Shown here piece by piece: positions 48,833 through 54,592 of a DNA stretch of 64,000 bases; the first letter of the stretch is position 1, and every line of letters starts with the position of its first letter. The stretch spans positions 124,001-188,000 of the forward strand of contig NZ_JAGIAW010000001.1 in NCBI RefSeq assembly GCF_017744655.1, read 5' to 3'. Position numbers and translations under genes: made by a program. This DNA is from Devosia sp. Lineage in GTDB: Bacteria > Pseudomonadota > Alphaproteobacteria > Rhizobiales > Devosiaceae. The notes under the pieces are model-generated. The model was not told the DNA's origin, ran no database searches, and saw nothing but the letters and a program-made list of their open reading frames with translations.

Positions 48833-49483
48833 ATGCGCAGTGCTTTGATCGTCTATGGCGGCTGGGAAGGCCATGATCCCGAGGAATGCGCGACGATCTA
48901 TCGTCGCTGGCTGCACGAGGACGGCTATTCGGTGCGTACCGCGACCGAGACCAGCGCCTTTGCCGATCCCTCCATTCGCGACTTGTCGCTGATCATTCCG
49001 ATCTTCACGATGAGCAAGATTGCCAAGGAAGAAGTGGAGAACCTCACCAAGGCGGTCGAAGGCGGCGTCGGTCTGGCCGGGCACCATGGCGGCATGAGCG
49101 ACGCTTTCCGCGAGGCGGTAGACTATCAGTTCATGGTTGGCGGCCAATGGGTGGCGCATCCGGGCAATATCATCGACTACACGGTCGATGTGACCAAGCC
49201 CGAGGACCCGATCATGGCGGGGATTTCCGGTTCGTTCCCCTACAAGTCCGAGCAGTATTACATGCATGTCGACCCCTCCAACGAGGTGCTGGCGACGACG
49301 ACTTTTACGGGTGAGCATGCCTATTGGATCGACGGCGTGGTAATGCCGGTGGTCTGGAAACGCAAGCATGGCAAGGGCAAGGTGTTCCATATGACGCTGG
49401 GGCATCAGGCCAAGGAATTCGAGAATTCCAACATGGCGACGATCATGCGCCGCGGCATGAACTGGGCGGCGAAGGACGAATAG
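48833..49483 (+). CDS. Second ThuA-like protein
   Basis: 216-residue ThuA-fold protein, shorter than the operon ThuA. SALIVYGGWEGHDPEECATI opens the fold; GGVGLAGHHGGMSDAFREAV resembles the [12 protein letters not shown] segment of ThuA; KGKVFHMTLGHQAKEFENSN ends it. No oxidoreductase partner is adjacent. Proteins of this class act on sugars and related compounds in several pathways, so it need not be for trehalose. It is a single gene between the 5'-nucleotidase and nrsF. A GGGGG ribosome-binding site precedes the ATG. Confidence 0.85.
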   Translation: MRSALIVYGGWEGHDPEECATIYRRWLHEDGYSVRTATETSAFADPSIRDLSLIIPIFTMSKIAKEEVENLTKAVEGGVGLAGHHGGMSDAFREAVDYQFMVGGQWVAHPGNIIDYTVDVTKPEDPIMAGISGSFPYKSEQYYMHVDPSNEVLATTTFTGEHAYWIDGVVMPVVWKRKHGKGKVFHMTLGHQAKEFENSNMATIMRRGMNWAAKDE

Positions 49484-49490
49484 CCCCCCG

Positions 49491-50129
49491 CTACCAGCGC
49501 AGAACGAACTTTCCGATGACGGCGCCGAGGAGGGCCGTCATCGCGATACCCAGAGAATACCAGACGGCCATGAACATCATGCCGGTTTCGCCGCAATAAA
49601 AGGCATAGGCCCAGGCGCCGAAGCCGCCCGCGACGAGGCCGGCGGCGAAGCCGGCGAGGGTGGGCGAGCGCGGCGCGGTGGTGCGTAGCGCCGAGAGCAG
49701 AGCAATCAGTACAGGCGTGCCGGCGAGCGTGATCAGCCATGGGCAGACCATGGCGGTCTGGCCCATGAGCATGGGCATGGACCAATCGGCGCGCATCCAC
49801 ATCATGGTGCCGCTGCCGAGGGCGAAGAGGGCGAGGAGGCCGGCGCCGGCGAGGGGCCAGATGATGCGGCCATCGGGGCGGGCGAGGACCGGCGCGGCGG
49901 CGAGGCCCAGGAGGCCGAAGGCCAGCGTATAGCCAAACTTTGTCCAGAACATCATGGCGCTATCGGCGCCGCCGAAGGGGCGGCCCATCACGAGGTCGAG
50001 GACGAGATAGACGCCGACTATGGTGACCAGGACGCCGATGATGAGGGCGAGGATCAGCCGGCGTTCGATGGCGCGAGGCGGAGTGGGTTTTAGATCGGCG
50101 GCGAGGCGATTGATGAGGTCGTCGGTCAT
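49491..50129 (-). CDS. nrsF: NrsF-like anti-sigma factor (DUF1109)
   Basis: 212-residue membrane anti-sigma factor. A short cytoplasmic N-terminus (MTDDLINRLAADLKPTPP) is followed by six hydrophobic helices (LILALIIGVLVTIVGVYLVL to the end), the DUF1109/NrsF plan. In Caulobacter NrsF holds SigF at the membrane until oxidants act on periplasmic Cys. Here Cys residues lie at about 132 (MVCPWL) and 179 (YCGETG), plausible sensors. It overlaps sigF by 4 bp (ATGA). Confidence 0.9.
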   Translation of the reverse strand: MTDDLINRLAADLKPTPPRAIERRLILALIIGVLVTIVGVYLVLDLVMGRPFGGADSAMMFWTKFGYTLAFGLLGLAAAPVLARPDGRIIWPLAGAGLLALFALGSGTMMWMRADWSMPMLMGQTAMVCPWLITLAGTPVLIALLSALRTTAPRSPTLAGFAAGLVAGGFGAWAYAFYCGETGMMFMAVWYSLGIAMTALLGAVIGKFVLRW

Positions 50130-50677
50130 TTCTCGCCTCCGGCAAACTTGCCCATCAGGGCTTTCAGACCGCGATGGATGGAGACCTTTGCCGCGGTTTC
50201 GGTGATGCCGTGGCGGGCGGCGGCTTCGGCGACCGTGGCGCCTTCGAGGCGGGTCTGGCGGATGAGGTCGGAGGTGCGGGGCGGAACCTGGCTCAGGACG
50301 GTTTCGATGTCGTGGCGGTCGGCGGCGCTGGCGCTGTCATCGGTGGCGAAGATCGGCGCATCGTCTTCGAGGGGGACGGTGGGACGGATGGCGTAGCGGC
50401 GGACGTGGTCCACGAATTTGTGGTGGGCGACGGCGTGCAGCCAGGCGGTGAAGGGCCGGGTGCGATCATAGGTTTCGCGCCGCGTGTGCACGGCCAGCAG
50501 GGTTTCCTGCACGAGGTCCTCCGCGTGCGAAGCATGGGCGGGACTGAGGCGGCGGGCAAACCAAGGACGCAGATAGCGTGTGAGGTCGGCCAGAAGCATT
50601 CGATAGGCGGAAGCGTCGCCATCGAGCGAAGCGAGCATTAGCCCGCGCAGTCGCATCTCGGTTTCGTCCGCCTTCAT
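50126..50677 (-). CDS. sigF: SigF-like ECF sigma factor
   Basis: 183-residue ECF sigma factor of the SigF/NrsF group. Region 2 has HAEDLVQETLLAVHTRRETY and PFTAWLHAVAHHKFVDHVRR. Region 4 has VPPRTSDLIRQTRLEGATVA and ITETAAKVSIHRGLKALMG. It directs transcription from GTAACC-N16-CGAA promoters; one is placed 10-36 bp upstream of its own start, so it is autoregulated. With so short a leader the messenger may begin close to the ATG, and a downstream start (for example MRLRGLML) is an alternative. Confidence 0.92.
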   Translation of the reverse strand: MKADETEMRLRGLMLASLDGDASAYRMLLADLTRYLRPWFARRLSPAHASHAEDLVQETLLAVHTRRETYDRTRPFTAWLHAVAHHKFVDHVRRYAIRPTVPLEDDAPIFATDDSASAADRHDIETVLSQVPPRTSDLIRQTRLEGATVAEAAARHGITETAAKVSIHRGLKALMGKFAGGEK

Positions 50678-50687
50678 TGGCTCTCCA

Positions 50688-50713
50688 TTCGCGGCAAAGC
50701 GGAGCGAGGTTAC
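50688..50713 (-). promoter_or_regulatory. SigF-type promoter of sigF-nrsF
   Basis: Minus strand GTAACC (50713-50708), 16-base spacer, CGAA (50691-50688). This matches the reported Caulobacter SigF consensus exactly. A start site 6-8 bases beyond would lie almost at the annotated ATG. Confidence 0.85.
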
Positions 50714-50760
50714 ACGGCAGACAGAAAAAAGCGAGGAGGGAACACGGCTGCGTGATCACG

Positions 50761-50786
50761 GTAACTGTTTGCGCTTCTTGGGCGAA
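50761..50786 (+). promoter_or_regulatory. SigF-type promoter of the Met-rich protein operon
   Basis: GTAACT (50761-50766), 16-base spacer, CGAA (50783-50786), one mismatch in the -35. It is 50 bp upstream of the Met-rich protein start and reads away from sigF. Confidence 0.8.
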
Positions 50787-50836
50787 TGGCGGGGACGAAC
50801 CGTGGCAGGGGCTGCGGTCGTCAAAGGGAGATGATT

Positions 50837-51145
50837 ATGTCTGTCAAAACCACCAGCCTTTCTGCTGCGCTTGTGCTGGCCCTGTTCATGGGCGGCAGCG
50901 TGTTGGCTCAGGACGCCATGGCGCCGGCGACCGACGGAATGGCCATGGATGCGATGGCGCCGATGATGAGCGATGACGACCTTGCCAAGTGTGTCGAGCA
51001 AGCCAAGGCAATTAGTTTTCCCGATGTCGCCATGGTCGCCGAACAGGCCTGCCACAACATCCACAATGGCCATGACGCAATGGGTAGCGATGCCATGGGT
51101 GGCGCTGCCATGATGGGCGGGGACGCCATGGCACCGAAGCAATAA
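50837..51145 (+). CDS. mrpX: Periplasmic methionine-rich protein (MrpX-like)
   Basis: 102-residue exported protein. A signal peptide (residues 1-24) ends GGSVLA before QDAMAP. The mature 78 residues hold 12 Met, mostly in DAM/AM repeats at both ends. Two Cys (KCVEQ and EQACHN) flank a middle helix, with several His. A Met-rich periplasmic protein linked to sigF-nrsF and a YedY-type reductase was described in Azospira as a hypochlorite scavenger regenerated by the reductase; sequence, order and promoter here match that plan. I chose this ATG because GGAG is 6 bases upstream. Expression is probably SigF-dependent. Confidence 0.8.
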   Translation: MSVKTTSLSAALVLALFMGGSVLAQDAMAPATDGMAMDAMAPMMSDDDLAKCVEQAKAISFPDVAMVAEQACHNIHNGHDAMGSDAMGGAAMMGGDAMAPKQ

Positions 51146-51162
51146 AATCGACGTGATGGCGA

Positions 51163-51201
51163 CCATCTGTCAGATGCAATACCGTTGCTACTGGCAGATG
51201 G
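51163..51201 (+). promoter_or_regulatory. Long hairpin between mrpX and the cytochrome gene
   Basis: CCATCTGTCAG (51163-51173) pairs with CTGGCAGATGG (51191-51201), 10 of 11 positions, across a 17-base loop. A further ATCTGCC copy follows at about 51206. No T-run follows, so it probably tunes read-through or mRNA stability rather than ending transcription. Confidence 0.55.
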
Positions 51202-51223
51202 TACTATCTGCCCGGGGGAAACC

Positions 51224-52072
51224 ATGACCGAAGCTGAAGATCTTTCAACCAAGCGGGGGCCGCTGGTCTATCGTCAATCTGTGTGGACGCGCGTTACGCA
51301 CTGGGTCTGGGCAATCTGCCTGTTTTTCCTAATGCTCTCGGGGCTGCAAATATTTAATGCTTTTCCTTCGCTCCATATTGGGCAGCAGGCAGGCTTCGAG
51401 TTTGACAATGCAGTGCTCAAGATCGGGGCGGTGAACACGCCCCAAGGCCCCCGCGGGCAAACGACCATCCTTGGTCAGACGTTCGATACGACCGGCGTTC
51501 TGGGGATGAGCGGTACGGCAGAAGCGCCGCAATATGTCGGCTTTCCAGGGGCCGTGACCATCCCGTCCTTCCGGGATCTGGCGACAGGGCGCGTGGTGCA
51601 CTTCTTCTTCGGCTGGGTGTTTGTCGCCGCGCTGTTTGTGTGGTTTCTGGCGAGTTTCATCAACGGACATTTGCGGCGCGATATTTTGCCGAAGGGCTCG
51701 GACATTTCGGGCCTGCCGAAAGATGCGCTCGATCACGCGCGGCTGAAGCTACACCACGGGCGCTCCTATACACCGCTGCAAAAGCTGAGCTATTTCGCGG
51801 TTTTCTTCGTACTCTTCCCGCTGATCATTCTAACCGGACTGACCATGAGCCCCGGTATGGATGCGGCCTGGCCTTGGCTGCTGGAGTTGTTTGGCGGGCG
51901 GCAAACGGCACGGACAATCCATTTTGGGGTCATGGTGCTGCTGGTGCTGTTTTTCATCGTGCATATCATCATGGTGCTGCTGGCCGGGCCGCTCAATGAA
52001 TTGAGATCAATGGTAACGGGCTGGTATCGCACTAGCCCCGACACACCGACCGAGGCGGGAGACAAGCCGTGA
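51224..52072 (+). CDS. Cytochrome b561-type membrane protein, partner of the oxidoreductase
   Basis: 282-residue inner-membrane protein of the di-heme cytochrome b561 / thiosulfate reductase-b group. Helix 1 contains WTRVTHWVWAICLFFLMLSG with a heme His; RVVHFFFGWVFVAALFVWFL holds a second; later helices have RTIHFGVMVLLVLFFIVHII with two more His. An insert of about 80 residues after helix 1 faces the periplasm. It should pass electrons from quinol to the adjacent molybdopterin protein, the role of YedZ/MsrQ elsewhere. It overlaps that gene by 4 bp (GTGA). A GGGGGAA ribosome-binding site precedes the ATG. Confidence 0.85.
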   Translation: MTEAEDLSTKRGPLVYRQSVWTRVTHWVWAICLFFLMLSGLQIFNAFPSLHIGQQAGFEFDNAVLKIGAVNTPQGPRGQTTILGQTFDTTGVLGMSGTAEAPQYVGFPGAVTIPSFRDLATGRVVHFFFGWVFVAALFVWFLASFINGHLRRDILPKGSDISGLPKDALDHARLKLHHGRSYTPLQKLSYFAVFFVLFPLIILTGLTMSPGMDAAWPWLLELFGGRQTARTIHFGVMVLLVLFFIVHIIMVLLAGPLNELRSMVTGWYRTSPDTPTEAGDKP

Positions 52073-52860
52073 GCAATATCATTCTCAATCGGCGAAAGCT
52101 TCTCGTCGGGTCGGCGGCACTTGGATCGAGCCTGGCGCTGGCGGGTTGCGATCAGTTCGACTTTTTGGGACAGCGGGGCCATCCGGTGAGGCAGGCGCTA
52201 GAGCAGGCCAATGTTCTTACCTATCGGGCGCAGCGGGCGCTGATCGGCGATCAGACGTTGGCGCGGGAATATTCGGCGAGCGAAATCCGGCAGGGCATGA
52301 AGCCTAATGGTTCGACCGAGCCGATGACGCCGGAGTACTTGTTCCTAAAGGGGCAGAATTTTACGAACTACAAGCTGACCATCAAGGGCATGGTTGAGCG
52401 GGAAGTGTCGTTCTCGCTCGACGAGTTGCGGAATATGCCGGCGCGCAGCCAGATCACGCGGCACGATTGCGTCGAAGGATGGAGCTGCATCGCCAAGTGG
52501 ACGGGAACGGCGTTGGGGCCGGTGCTGGATATGGCGGGAGTGAAGCCGGAGGCGCGGTATTGCGTCTATCACTGCTTCGACAATATCCAGAAGACGCTGT
52601 CAGGCGATATTTTCTATTATGAGAGTTCGGACCTGGTGGACGCCTATCATCCGCAGACGATCCTCTCCTATGGGCTCAACGACCAGGTTTTGCCGGTGAG
52701 CAATGGTGCGCCGGTGCGGCTGCGGATCGAGCGGGCGCTGGGGTACAAGCAGCCCAAGTATCTGCACACCATCGAGCTGGTGGATGATCTCACCCCGTTC
52801 GGGCGGGGGAAGGGCGGATATTGGCCGGATAATGGGTACGACTGGTACGGGGGCATATGA
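52069..52860 (+). CDS. YedY/MsrP-like molybdopterin oxidoreductase
   Basis: 263-residue exported protein of the sulfite-oxidase/MsrP superfamily. The N-terminus NRRKLLVGSAALGSSLALAG combines a twin-Arg-like RRK with a lipobox-like LAGC, so it may be Tat-exported and membrane-tethered. The molybdenum-ligand Cys is in TRHDCVEGWSCIAKW. FDNIQKTLSGDIFYYESSDL and NGAPVRLRIERALGYKQPKY complete the fold. MsrP-type enzymes reduce Met-sulfoxide in periplasmic proteins. Start is GTG, fixed by a GTGA overlap with the cytochrome gene. With mrpX it forms a Met-oxidation/repair pair. A 253-bp gap with no clear feature follows. Confidence 0.88.
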   Translation: MSNIILNRRKLLVGSAALGSSLALAGCDQFDFLGQRGHPVRQALEQANVLTYRAQRALIGDQTLAREYSASEIRQGMKPNGSTEPMTPEYLFLKGQNFTNYKLTIKGMVEREVSFSLDELRNMPARSQITRHDCVEGWSCIAKWTGTALGPVLDMAGVKPEARYCVYHCFDNIQKTLSGDIFYYESSDLVDAYHPQTILSYGLNDQVLPVSNGAPVRLRIERALGYKQPKYLHTIELVDDLTPFGRGKGGYWPDNGYDWYGGI

Positions 52861-53113
52861 GGGCGGCACAGCACCCATGCGCCTGCCACACTTGCCTTTC
52901 CGGGCGTTTTCCCCCATATGGGAAGCAGCGTTGCGGCATAGAGTGCCGCTAACGGGCTTCTCTTCTTACTCAAGCGGTGAGCGGCGAAGTCATCCCGGAT
53001 AGCGAAAATGCTCCGGGTTTGAGCCAGCACCCGCGCGATAATCTCCTATCGCCCGATTGCAATTTTTGTTCATGGCGCCTGCCTCTTGCAGAGCGCCCGC
53101 GCAGCATTTGCGC

Positions 53114-54592
<1,479 letters not shown>

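What the first reader, a model, noticed from the sequence alone, without database searches (positions are those of the whole stretch)
49491..52860. SigF-NrsF locus driving a Met-rich scavenger and MsrP-type repair operon
nrsF-sigF faces mrpX, a b561-type cytochrome and a YedY/MsrP-like oxidoreductase. The mature MrpX-like protein has 12 Met in 78 residues. This matches the reactive-chlorine response described in Azospira, in which a Met-rich peptide is oxidised and then reduced by a YedY-type enzyme. Here the electron donor is a b561-type protein with a large periplasmic insert, instead of the usual MsrQ/YedZ form, and the MrpX-like protein has two added Cys residues.
Basis: partly seen in the sequence, partly recalled or inferred. 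Interest (0 to 1): 0.7.

Follow-up and report, generated by a model that had tools for sequence, protein, structure and literature searches.

The report
SigF-controlled envelope methionine-oxidation defence operon
A Devosia bacterium carries a switch-controlled gene set that most likely lets it soak up oxidants on a disposable methionine-rich protein outside the inner membrane and then repair that protein, using a repair enzyme and electron feeder that differ from the textbook pair.

Summary
In detail: nrsF-sigF (ECF16 type) faces genes for a secreted Met-rich protein, a b561-family cytochrome with an insert, and a YedY-fold molybdoenzyme. Both operons carry GTAAC-N17-CGAA promoters. The methionine-oxidation reading is well supported: the only three TGTAAC-N17-CGAA sites in the genome precede sigF and two msrB genes, and in Devosia the msrB motifs track SigF-NrsF: 23 of 23 genomes with versus 0 of 7 without; 17 of 20 versus 1 of 10. 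The genome gave no MsrP or MsrQ hit. But the enzyme is not MsrP (85 bits, cut-off 207; outside the MsrP clade). The b561-YedY pair is widespread and relatives are in print: an E. coli operon needed against an organic peroxide (PMC8550376) and a Burkholderia trio induced by hypochlorite (PMC2830190). So the b561 donor is not new. New here, as far as searched: the regulon, the invariant Tat/lipobox signature, and a conserved C-x19-C core in the Met-rich protein (29 of 29 extracted). Inducing oxidant, enzyme activity and Cys role are untested. New variant of a known kind.

The parts
49491..50129 (-). nrsF, membrane anti-sigma factor with Cys129 and Cys179
   Evidence: Pfam NrsF 174.3 bits; NCBIfam AntiSigF_NrsF 124 bits, under its cut-off of 300; Cys129 kept in 21 of 23 and Cys179 in 23 of 23 aligned NrsF
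50126..50677 (-). sigF, ECF sigma factor
   Evidence: Sigma70_r2 and r4_2; NF009191 181 bits over its cut-off of 171
50688..50713 (-). ECF16-type promoter of sigF-nrsF, GTAAC-N17-CGAA
50761..50786 (+). ECF16-type promoter of mrpX-b561-YedY, GTAAC-N17-CGAA
   Evidence: same motif upstream in 28 of 29 extracted Devosia mrpX genes
50831..51145 (+). mrpX-like gene, secreted Met-rich protein (start may be 50837)
   Evidence: homologues in 36 of 75 Devosia genomes, 35 linked
50972..51067 (+). two-Cys helical core of the Met-rich protein (residues 48-79, C54 and C74)
   Evidence: C-x19-C in 29 of 29; two helices modelled at pLDDT about 85-92
51224..52072 (+). b561-family membrane cytochrome
   Evidence: Ni_hydr_CYTB 72.9 bits; four His invariant in 20 aligned sequences
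51377..51541 (+). insert between membrane helices 1 and 2 of the cytochrome (approximate limits)
   Evidence: present in the closer relatives (group A), absent from the short cytochromes (group B)
52069..52860 (+). YedY-fold molybdopterin oxidoreductase with RR motif and lipobox Cys27
   Evidence: Oxidored_molyb 103 bits; R8, R9, C27 and C134 invariant in 24 aligned sequences; model matches 1xdq/1xdy first

Best explanation
A SigF-NrsF (ECF16) controlled cell-envelope defence against methionine oxidation. Oxidant acts on NrsF and frees SigF (inferred from studied homologues). SigF transcribes its own operon, the mrpX-b561-YedY operon and two msrB genes (promoter motifs shown, transcription inferred). 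The secreted Met-rich protein is oxidised in place of other envelope proteins (inferred). The YedY-fold molybdoenzyme, probably a Tat-exported lipoprotein, reduces methionine sulfoxide in it and in other envelope proteins with electrons from quinol passed on by the b561-family cytochrome, which takes the place of MsrQ (inferred). A Tat-type MsrB and a cytosolic MsrB repair R-sulfoxides in their own compartments (family shown, activity inferred).
For: Both facing promoters match the ECF16 consensus. In the whole genome the only three TGTAAC-N17-CGAA sites precede sigF and two msrB genes. In Devosia the msrB motif follows NrsF: 23 of 23 with, 0 of 7 without; and 17 of 20 with, 1 of 10 without; background 0 of 418 and 0 of 407 windows. 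The motif lies upstream of the b561/mrpX operon in 10 of 10 loci with SigF alongside and 1 of 64 without, and in 14 of 14 and 2 of 65 named loci. MrpX was never linked to YedY without NrsF, save one genome where NrsF is on another contig. NrsF keeps C129 and C179, the residues studied in OsrA (PMC3420878, passages). No MsrQ-family hit and no MsrP hit in the genome. Homologous systems: Brucella bcrXQP induced by HOCl (PMC8315932), UPEC c3566-c3567 mutants sensitive to tert-butyl hydroperoxide (PMC8550376), Burkholderia BCAL1105-1107 induced by NaOCl and H2O2 (PMC2830190).
Against: No expression or enzyme data for this organism. The b561-YedY pair is in 75 of 75 Devosia genomes (three matches broken or partial), 25 of them without linked NrsF and 40 without linked MrpX, so it does not depend on the rest. 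Other ECF16 systems answer to metals (Caulobacter chromium and cadmium), and the S. meliloti one was not induced by H2O2, cadmium or chromate. The Brucella mutants showed no H2O2 phenotype and the UPEC relative was tied to peroxide rather than chlorine, so the oxidant is open. Genomes compared are related, so the counts are not independent.
Confidence: 0.72

Rival explanations
1. It is mainly a metal response: SigF-NrsF senses copper or another soft metal, the Met/Cys protein binds the ion in the periplasm, and the reductases repair metal-driven Met oxidation as a side task.
For: Caulobacter SigF acts in chromium and cadmium stress and controls a YedY gene (PMC3511200, passages). Met-rich sequence with Cys and His can bind Cu(I) (general knowledge). 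E. coli MsrP takes part in copper stress (PMC9302797, abstract in the listing).
Against: The three TGTAAC-N17-CGAA sites of the genome lead to sigF and two msrB genes, none to a metal gene. 17 of the 39 weaker sites were not examined. Two MsrB genes fit oxidation better than metal binding.
Confidence: 0.12
2. The b561-YedY pair is a housekeeping sulfur- or N-oxide redox enzyme (for example a sulfoxide reductase or sulfite dehydrogenase) that SigF has recruited in some lineages; MrpX is not its substrate.
For: The pair is in 75 of 75 Devosia genomes, with or without SigF and MrpX, and 61 of 79 named loci showed neither regulator, motif nor an upstream Met-rich gene. The enzyme is outside the MsrP clade.
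Against: It keeps the CVE-W stretch of MsrP at the Mo-ligand Cys. Met-rich peptides lie beside such pairs in alpha-, beta- and gammaproteobacteria. The UPEC relative gives an oxidant phenotype.
Confidence: 0.14

Closest known systems
BcrS-AbcS and bcrXQP of Brucella melitensis (PMC8315932; passages and section 7 read)
   Same: ECF16 sigma with NrsF-family anti-sigma; ECF16 promoters; Met-rich protein first in an operon with a putative MetO reductase pair; induced by HOCl.
   Different: Its Q and P are described as MsrQP homologues; here the pair is b561 plus YedY-like. But its gene order X-Q-P is that of b561-YedY loci, and Brucella tritici has b561-YedY at the matching place. I could not check BcrQ and BcrP themselves. 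The Brucella tritici peptide has no Cys.
UPEC c3564-c3568 (PMC8550376; passages and section 10 read)
   Same: Cytochrome, MsrP-like oxidoreductase (27.6% identical to MsrP) and Met-rich peptide in one operon, with an oxidant-resistance phenotype. A UTI89 relative has a PF01292 cytochrome beside it.
   Different: Two-component control instead of SigF-NrsF; Met-rich gene last; the short cytochrome without insert. c3566-c3568 themselves were not fetched; the link rests on gene order, the reported identity and the UTI89 relative.
SigF-NrsF, MrpX and YedYZ of Azospira and perchlorate islands (Melnyk 2015 not held; known here from PMC4623255 and PMC8315932 passages and recall)
   Same: Same regulators, a Met-rich scavenger and a YedY-fold enzyme.
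   Different: YedYZ (MsrPQ) there; b561 and a non-MsrP enzyme here; two conserved Cys in the Met-rich protein.
BCAL1105-1107 of Burkholderia cenocepacia (PMC2830190 and PMC2559838; passages read)
   Same: Exported protein, cytochrome b561 and oxidoreductase, raised by NaOCl 12.7, 8.3 and 3.4 fold (microarray). The published BCAL1107 primers encode ESTYRL and KNPKHI; placed on the Caballeronia homologue they span 377 bases, the published product length.
   Different: Sequence not fetched; of the primers only the reverse one matches the Caballeronia DNA (1 mismatch), the forward one matches only as peptide. Whether BCAL1105 is Met-rich was not seen.
EcfF-OsrA of Bradyrhizobium (PMC3420878; passages read)
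   Same: NrsF-family anti-sigma with C129 and C179; regulon with three peptide MetO reductases.
   Different: The regulon table seen lists no b561-YedY pair under those names.

Membership tests
MsrPQ | MsrP curated model NF003767 (cut-off 207 bits) | tested here: not met
   85.1 bits; an Azospirillum MsrP scores 482
MsrPQ | Enzyme inside the MsrP clade | tested here: not met
   MsrP is a 100/100 clade of 9 rows without it; groups A and B lie outside, but deeper joins are weak (39/16) and long branches are warned of
MsrPQ | MsrQ partner (PF01794) | tested here: not met
   partner is PF01292; no PF01794 match in the genome; Azospirillum MsrQ control gives PF01794
MsrPQ | Mo-ligand Cys in a CVE-W stretch, YedY fold | tested here: met
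   C134, E136, W138; best solved relatives 1xdq and 1xdy by sequence and fold
MsrPQ | Protein MetO reductase activity | not testable with these tools
   needs enzyme assay
MrpX / MXKDX repeat proteins | TIGR02953 model (cut-off 41 bits) | tested here: not met
   19.7 bits; Caballeronia and Rahnella peptides score 59.5 and 56.8
MrpX / MXKDX repeat proteins | Small, secreted, Met-rich, in an operon with a YedY-fold enzyme | tested here: met
   12 Met in 78 mature residues; Met 10.2-19.1% in 29 Devosia peptides
MrpX / MXKDX repeat proteins | Sacrificial oxidation and reduction by the linked enzyme | not testable with these tools
   needs mass spectrometry
ECF16 SigF-NrsF | NrsF-domain anti-sigma encoded with the sigma factor | tested here: met
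   Pfam NrsF 174.3 bits; the narrower NCBIfam equivalog is not reached, 124 of 300 bits
ECF16 SigF-NrsF | Cys129 and Cys179 in the anti-sigma factor | tested here: met
   both present; 21 of 23 and 23 of 23 aligned sequences
ECF16 SigF-NrsF | Promoter (T/C)GTAAC-N17-CGAA at own and target operons | tested here: met
   TGTAAC for sigF; GGTAAC for mrpX, first base outside the quoted consensus
b561-YedY-Met-rich loci (UPEC c3566-c3568 kind) | PF01292 cytochrome, Oxidored_molyb enzyme and Met-rich peptide adjacent | tested here: met
   the enzyme is 36-40% identical to three group-B enzymes
b561-YedY-Met-rich loci (UPEC c3566-c3568 kind) | Short cytochrome and two-component control | tested here: not met
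   insert-bearing cytochrome and ECF sigma control here; Caballeronia has DUF1109 and sigma beside the short cytochrome

The most novel reading that the evidence does not exclude
The Met-rich protein is more than a methionine sink: its conserved C-x19-C helical hairpin is a thiol switch that forms a disulfide under oxidant and either docks the protein to the b561-YedY repair complex or reports the oxidation state to NrsF, so that scavenger, repair enzyme and anti-sigma factor form one feedback circuit.
Probability: 0.15. Interest if true: 0.75.

Novelty: new variant of a known kind. Interest (0 to 1): 0.48.

Why it matters
It ties genes now labelled only 'cytochrome b/b6 domain-containing' and 'molybdopterin-dependent oxidoreductase' to a defined regulon for methionine oxidation that reaches envelope and cytosol, in a genome where no MsrP or MsrQ was found. 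If the enzyme reduces Met-sulfoxide, the quinol-to-MetO repair line exists with two unrelated membrane partners. Published systems called MsrPQ-like may belong to this other lineage. The conserved Cys core gives a direct question about how a sacrificial protein is recycled.

Tried and rejected
Rejected: that the enzyme is MsrP; that the cytochrome is MsrQ; that the b561 partner is peculiar to this locus. Weighed and not preferred: metal response; housekeeping enzyme.

Led nowhere: looking in papers for the annotation of Brucella BcrQ and BcrP by locus tag; sigma-70, terminator and inverted-repeat scans, nothing above chance; Rfam and tRNA scans of the window, no hit. Of 39 weaker motif sites in the genome (reversed control 137), 20 came as loci. 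Two of the 20 are the sigF and mrpX promoters; the other 18 lie in ORFs of at least 100 aa, which were not checked as genes. The remaining 19 include the two msrB sites; 17 were not looked at. Avoidance of MsrP and b561-YedY in 297 genomes (both 38, pair only 45, MsrP only 162, neither 52; p 1.9e-6) is not corrected for relatedness and gets little weight. In the tree, group A itself has weak support (67/55), and whether A and B are one lineage is not resolved; 7 of the 10 MsrP loci entered it, one as a partial sequence, with 2 MsrP from plasmid records.

Rows dropped and limits: a weak MrpX hit (G306, E 9e-4, elsewhere in its genome) was not counted as linked; G338 was counted as MrpX-linked though its NrsF lies on another contig. 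MrpX was extracted from 29 of the 30 loci held, of 36 genomes with a hit. msrB promoters were checked at the 30 best loci for each gene, of 74 genomes with a match; one without the motif (G338, cytosolic) has a truncated frame, and the one motif in a genome without NrsF (G334) is in a genome 85% complete. Three of 75 YedY matches are broken or partial (G298, G360, G362). The 73 loci are those I fetched, not every match. Met-rich genes were sought only upstream. Nine Rhizobium-type peptides were measured for Cys spacing; two more (L228, L229) were seen and not measured.
Full report
What is there. The window lies in a 4.41 Mb genome. Its genus is Devosia, judged by the names of the closest named loci. 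On the minus strand nrsF (49491-50129) and sigF (50126-50677) overlap by four bases. Facing them are genes for a Met-rich secreted protein (50831-51145), a b561-family cytochrome (51224-52072) and a molybdopterin oxidoreductase (52069-52860), the last two overlapping by four bases.

Promoters. Both operons carry GTAAC, 17 bases, CGAA: 50713-50688 on the minus strand and 50761-50786 on the plus strand. The ECF16 consensus (T/C)GTAAC-N17-CGAA is quoted in PMC8315932 (section 7). The sigF site has T before GTAAC; the mrpX site has G, which is outside that quoted consensus.

Regulon. In the whole genome TGTAAC-N(16-19)-CGAA occurs five times, its reversed control 46 times. The three sites with 17 bases precede sigF, a msrB whose product has an RR-type signal (by eye), and a cytosolic msrB. 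I then asked whether the msrB motifs follow SigF in the genus. At the 30 best loci for each gene the motif was upstream of the first msrB in 23 of 23 genomes with NrsF and 0 of 7 without, and of the second in 17 of 20 and 1 of 10; other windows of the same loci gave 0 of 418 and 0 of 407. In 74 b561-YedY loci of the order, the window included, the motif lay upstream of the operon in 10 of 10 with SigF alongside and 1 of 64 without; other windows gave 15 of 1231 and the reversed control 1 of 74. In 79 named loci the figures were 14 of 14 and 2 of 65. Related genomes are not independent, but the contrast is large.

Distribution. A YedY match was found in 75 of 75 Devosia genomes (three broken or partial), linked NrsF in 50 and linked MrpX in 35. 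MrpX was not linked without NrsF, apart from one genome where NrsF is on another contig. So the layers are nested: enzyme in all, regulators in most, sink protein in about half. Sixteen genomes have linked NrsF and no MrpX hit; there NrsF and YedY lie 1554-1909 bases apart, against 1921-2446 with MrpX. In the three of these that I fetched, the promoter lies 122-130 bases before the cytochrome gene. The seven Devosia genomes in the order sample gave no MsrP match at E 1e-30, while 200 of 297 genomes of the order did. The window genome has no MsrQ-family match and two other, short molybdopterin-domain frames.

The enzyme. Its best solved relative by sequence is E. coli YedY/MsrP (1xdq, E 6e-14); the model (mean pLDDT 81.6) finds the same first by fold. 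It keeps the CVE-W stretch at the Mo-ligand Cys. It differs from MsrP in score (85 of 207 bits), identity (25.6% to E. coli MsrP) and place in the tree, and it has an RR motif and a lipobox Cys, invariant in 24 aligned sequences, which I read as a Tat-exported lipoprotein; no signal predictor was run. Groups A (insert-bearing cytochrome) and B (short cytochrome) both fall outside MsrP, but the tree does not settle whether A and B are one lineage.

The cytochrome. Four His are invariant in 20 aligned sequences, enough for two b haems (ligation recalled). The insert of about 55 residues is shared by group A and missing in group B. That it faces the periplasm follows from the known topology of this family (recalled).

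The Met-rich protein. In 29 of 29 extracted Devosia peptides two Cys are kept, 19 residues apart, in a stretch poor in Met (60 of 986 residues), while the rest of the mature proteins has 309 Met in 1543. The model gives two helices, 48-59 and 64-79, at high local confidence; the whole model is weak (pLDDT 61.7, pTM 0.38), and I could not measure the Cys-Cys distance. The same spacing is in nine of nine Rhizobium-type peptides measured and in one from Rahnella; others have no Cys (L068, L105, L180, L234) or other spacings (5, 7, 45, 51 residues: L073 and L076, L208, L107, L104). In five-residue repeats a distance of 20 positions is a multiple of the repeat, so register alone may explain part of the agreement.

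What is already known. In Brucella melitensis the homologous sigma factor drives bcrXQP, which is induced by HOCl; deleting the operon lowers survival in HOCl and not in H2O2 (PMC8315932, passages and section 7). Its Q and P are called MsrQP homologues. Yet the order X-Q-P is that of b561-YedY loci, and Brucella tritici has b561-YedY at this place; I could not settle it. In uropathogenic E. coli c3566 (cytochrome B), c3567 (27.6% identical to MsrP) and c3568 (Met-rich) form an operon under a two-component system, and c3566 and c3567 mutants suffer under tert-butyl hydroperoxide and in macrophages (PMC8550376). The UTI89 relative has a PF01292 cytochrome. In Burkholderia cenocepacia BCAL1105-1107 rise with NaOCl and H2O2 (PMC2830190), and the BCAL1107 primers fit this enzyme family in encoded peptides and product length. 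A Caballeronia plasmid has DUF1109 and sigma facing b561, YedY and MXKDX genes. The paper searches (20 of 29 papers listed) listed no paper that joins cytochrome b561 by name with MsrP, YedY or MrpX; subscription papers are mostly outside that library.

How it most likely works. Oxidant alters NrsF, SigF is freed, the sink protein, the b561-YedY pair and two MsrB are made, and Met in the sink is oxidised and reduced again. Shown: gene content, promoter motifs, their conservation with SigF-NrsF, protein families. Inferred: the oxidant, SigF release, substrate, electron path, and any role of the Cys hairpin. I put the general model at 0.72 and hypochlorite as main natural signal at about 0.5.

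Verdict. The regulon, the non-MsrP enzyme and the Cys core make it a new variant.

Noticed in passing
L324 (E. coli plasmid NZ_AP024113.1): A two-component system faces b561, YedY-like and Met-rich genes on a conjugative F-type plasmid; the pair is in 73 of 5426 complete E. coli genomes at 99% identity or more, every one of the 74 places on a plasmid. A 77% identical enzyme gene lies on chromosomes (288 places).
   Followed up: partly
L180, Brucella tritici: The SigF-NrsF locus carries b561-YedY and a Met-rich gene, which raises the question whether the published Brucella BcrQP is really MsrQP.
   Followed up: partly
Devosia genomes without NrsF, e.g. G303, G329, G336, G337, G351: Where SigF-NrsF is missing the msrB promoter motifs are missing too, as if the regulon decayed together, while b561-YedY stays.
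   Followed up: partly
L041, L042, L043: SigF promoter directly before b561 with no room for a Met-rich gene: the operon exists without its presumed sink protein.
   Followed up: partly
L104 and L107: Met-rich proteins with 26-28% Met lie downstream of the short-cytochrome pair, with two Cys 45-51 residues apart.
   Followed up: no
L320, site G000:C7:101414-101441: A weaker motif (18-base spacer) lies 86 bases before a 214-aa ORF with a signal-peptide-like start; possible further SigF target.
   Followed up: no
window 48833-49483 (+) and 53093-54592 (+): Neighbours: a ThuA-domain protein downstream of nrsF on the other strand and a DEAD-box helicase after the operon; no sign that they belong to the system.
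   Followed up: no
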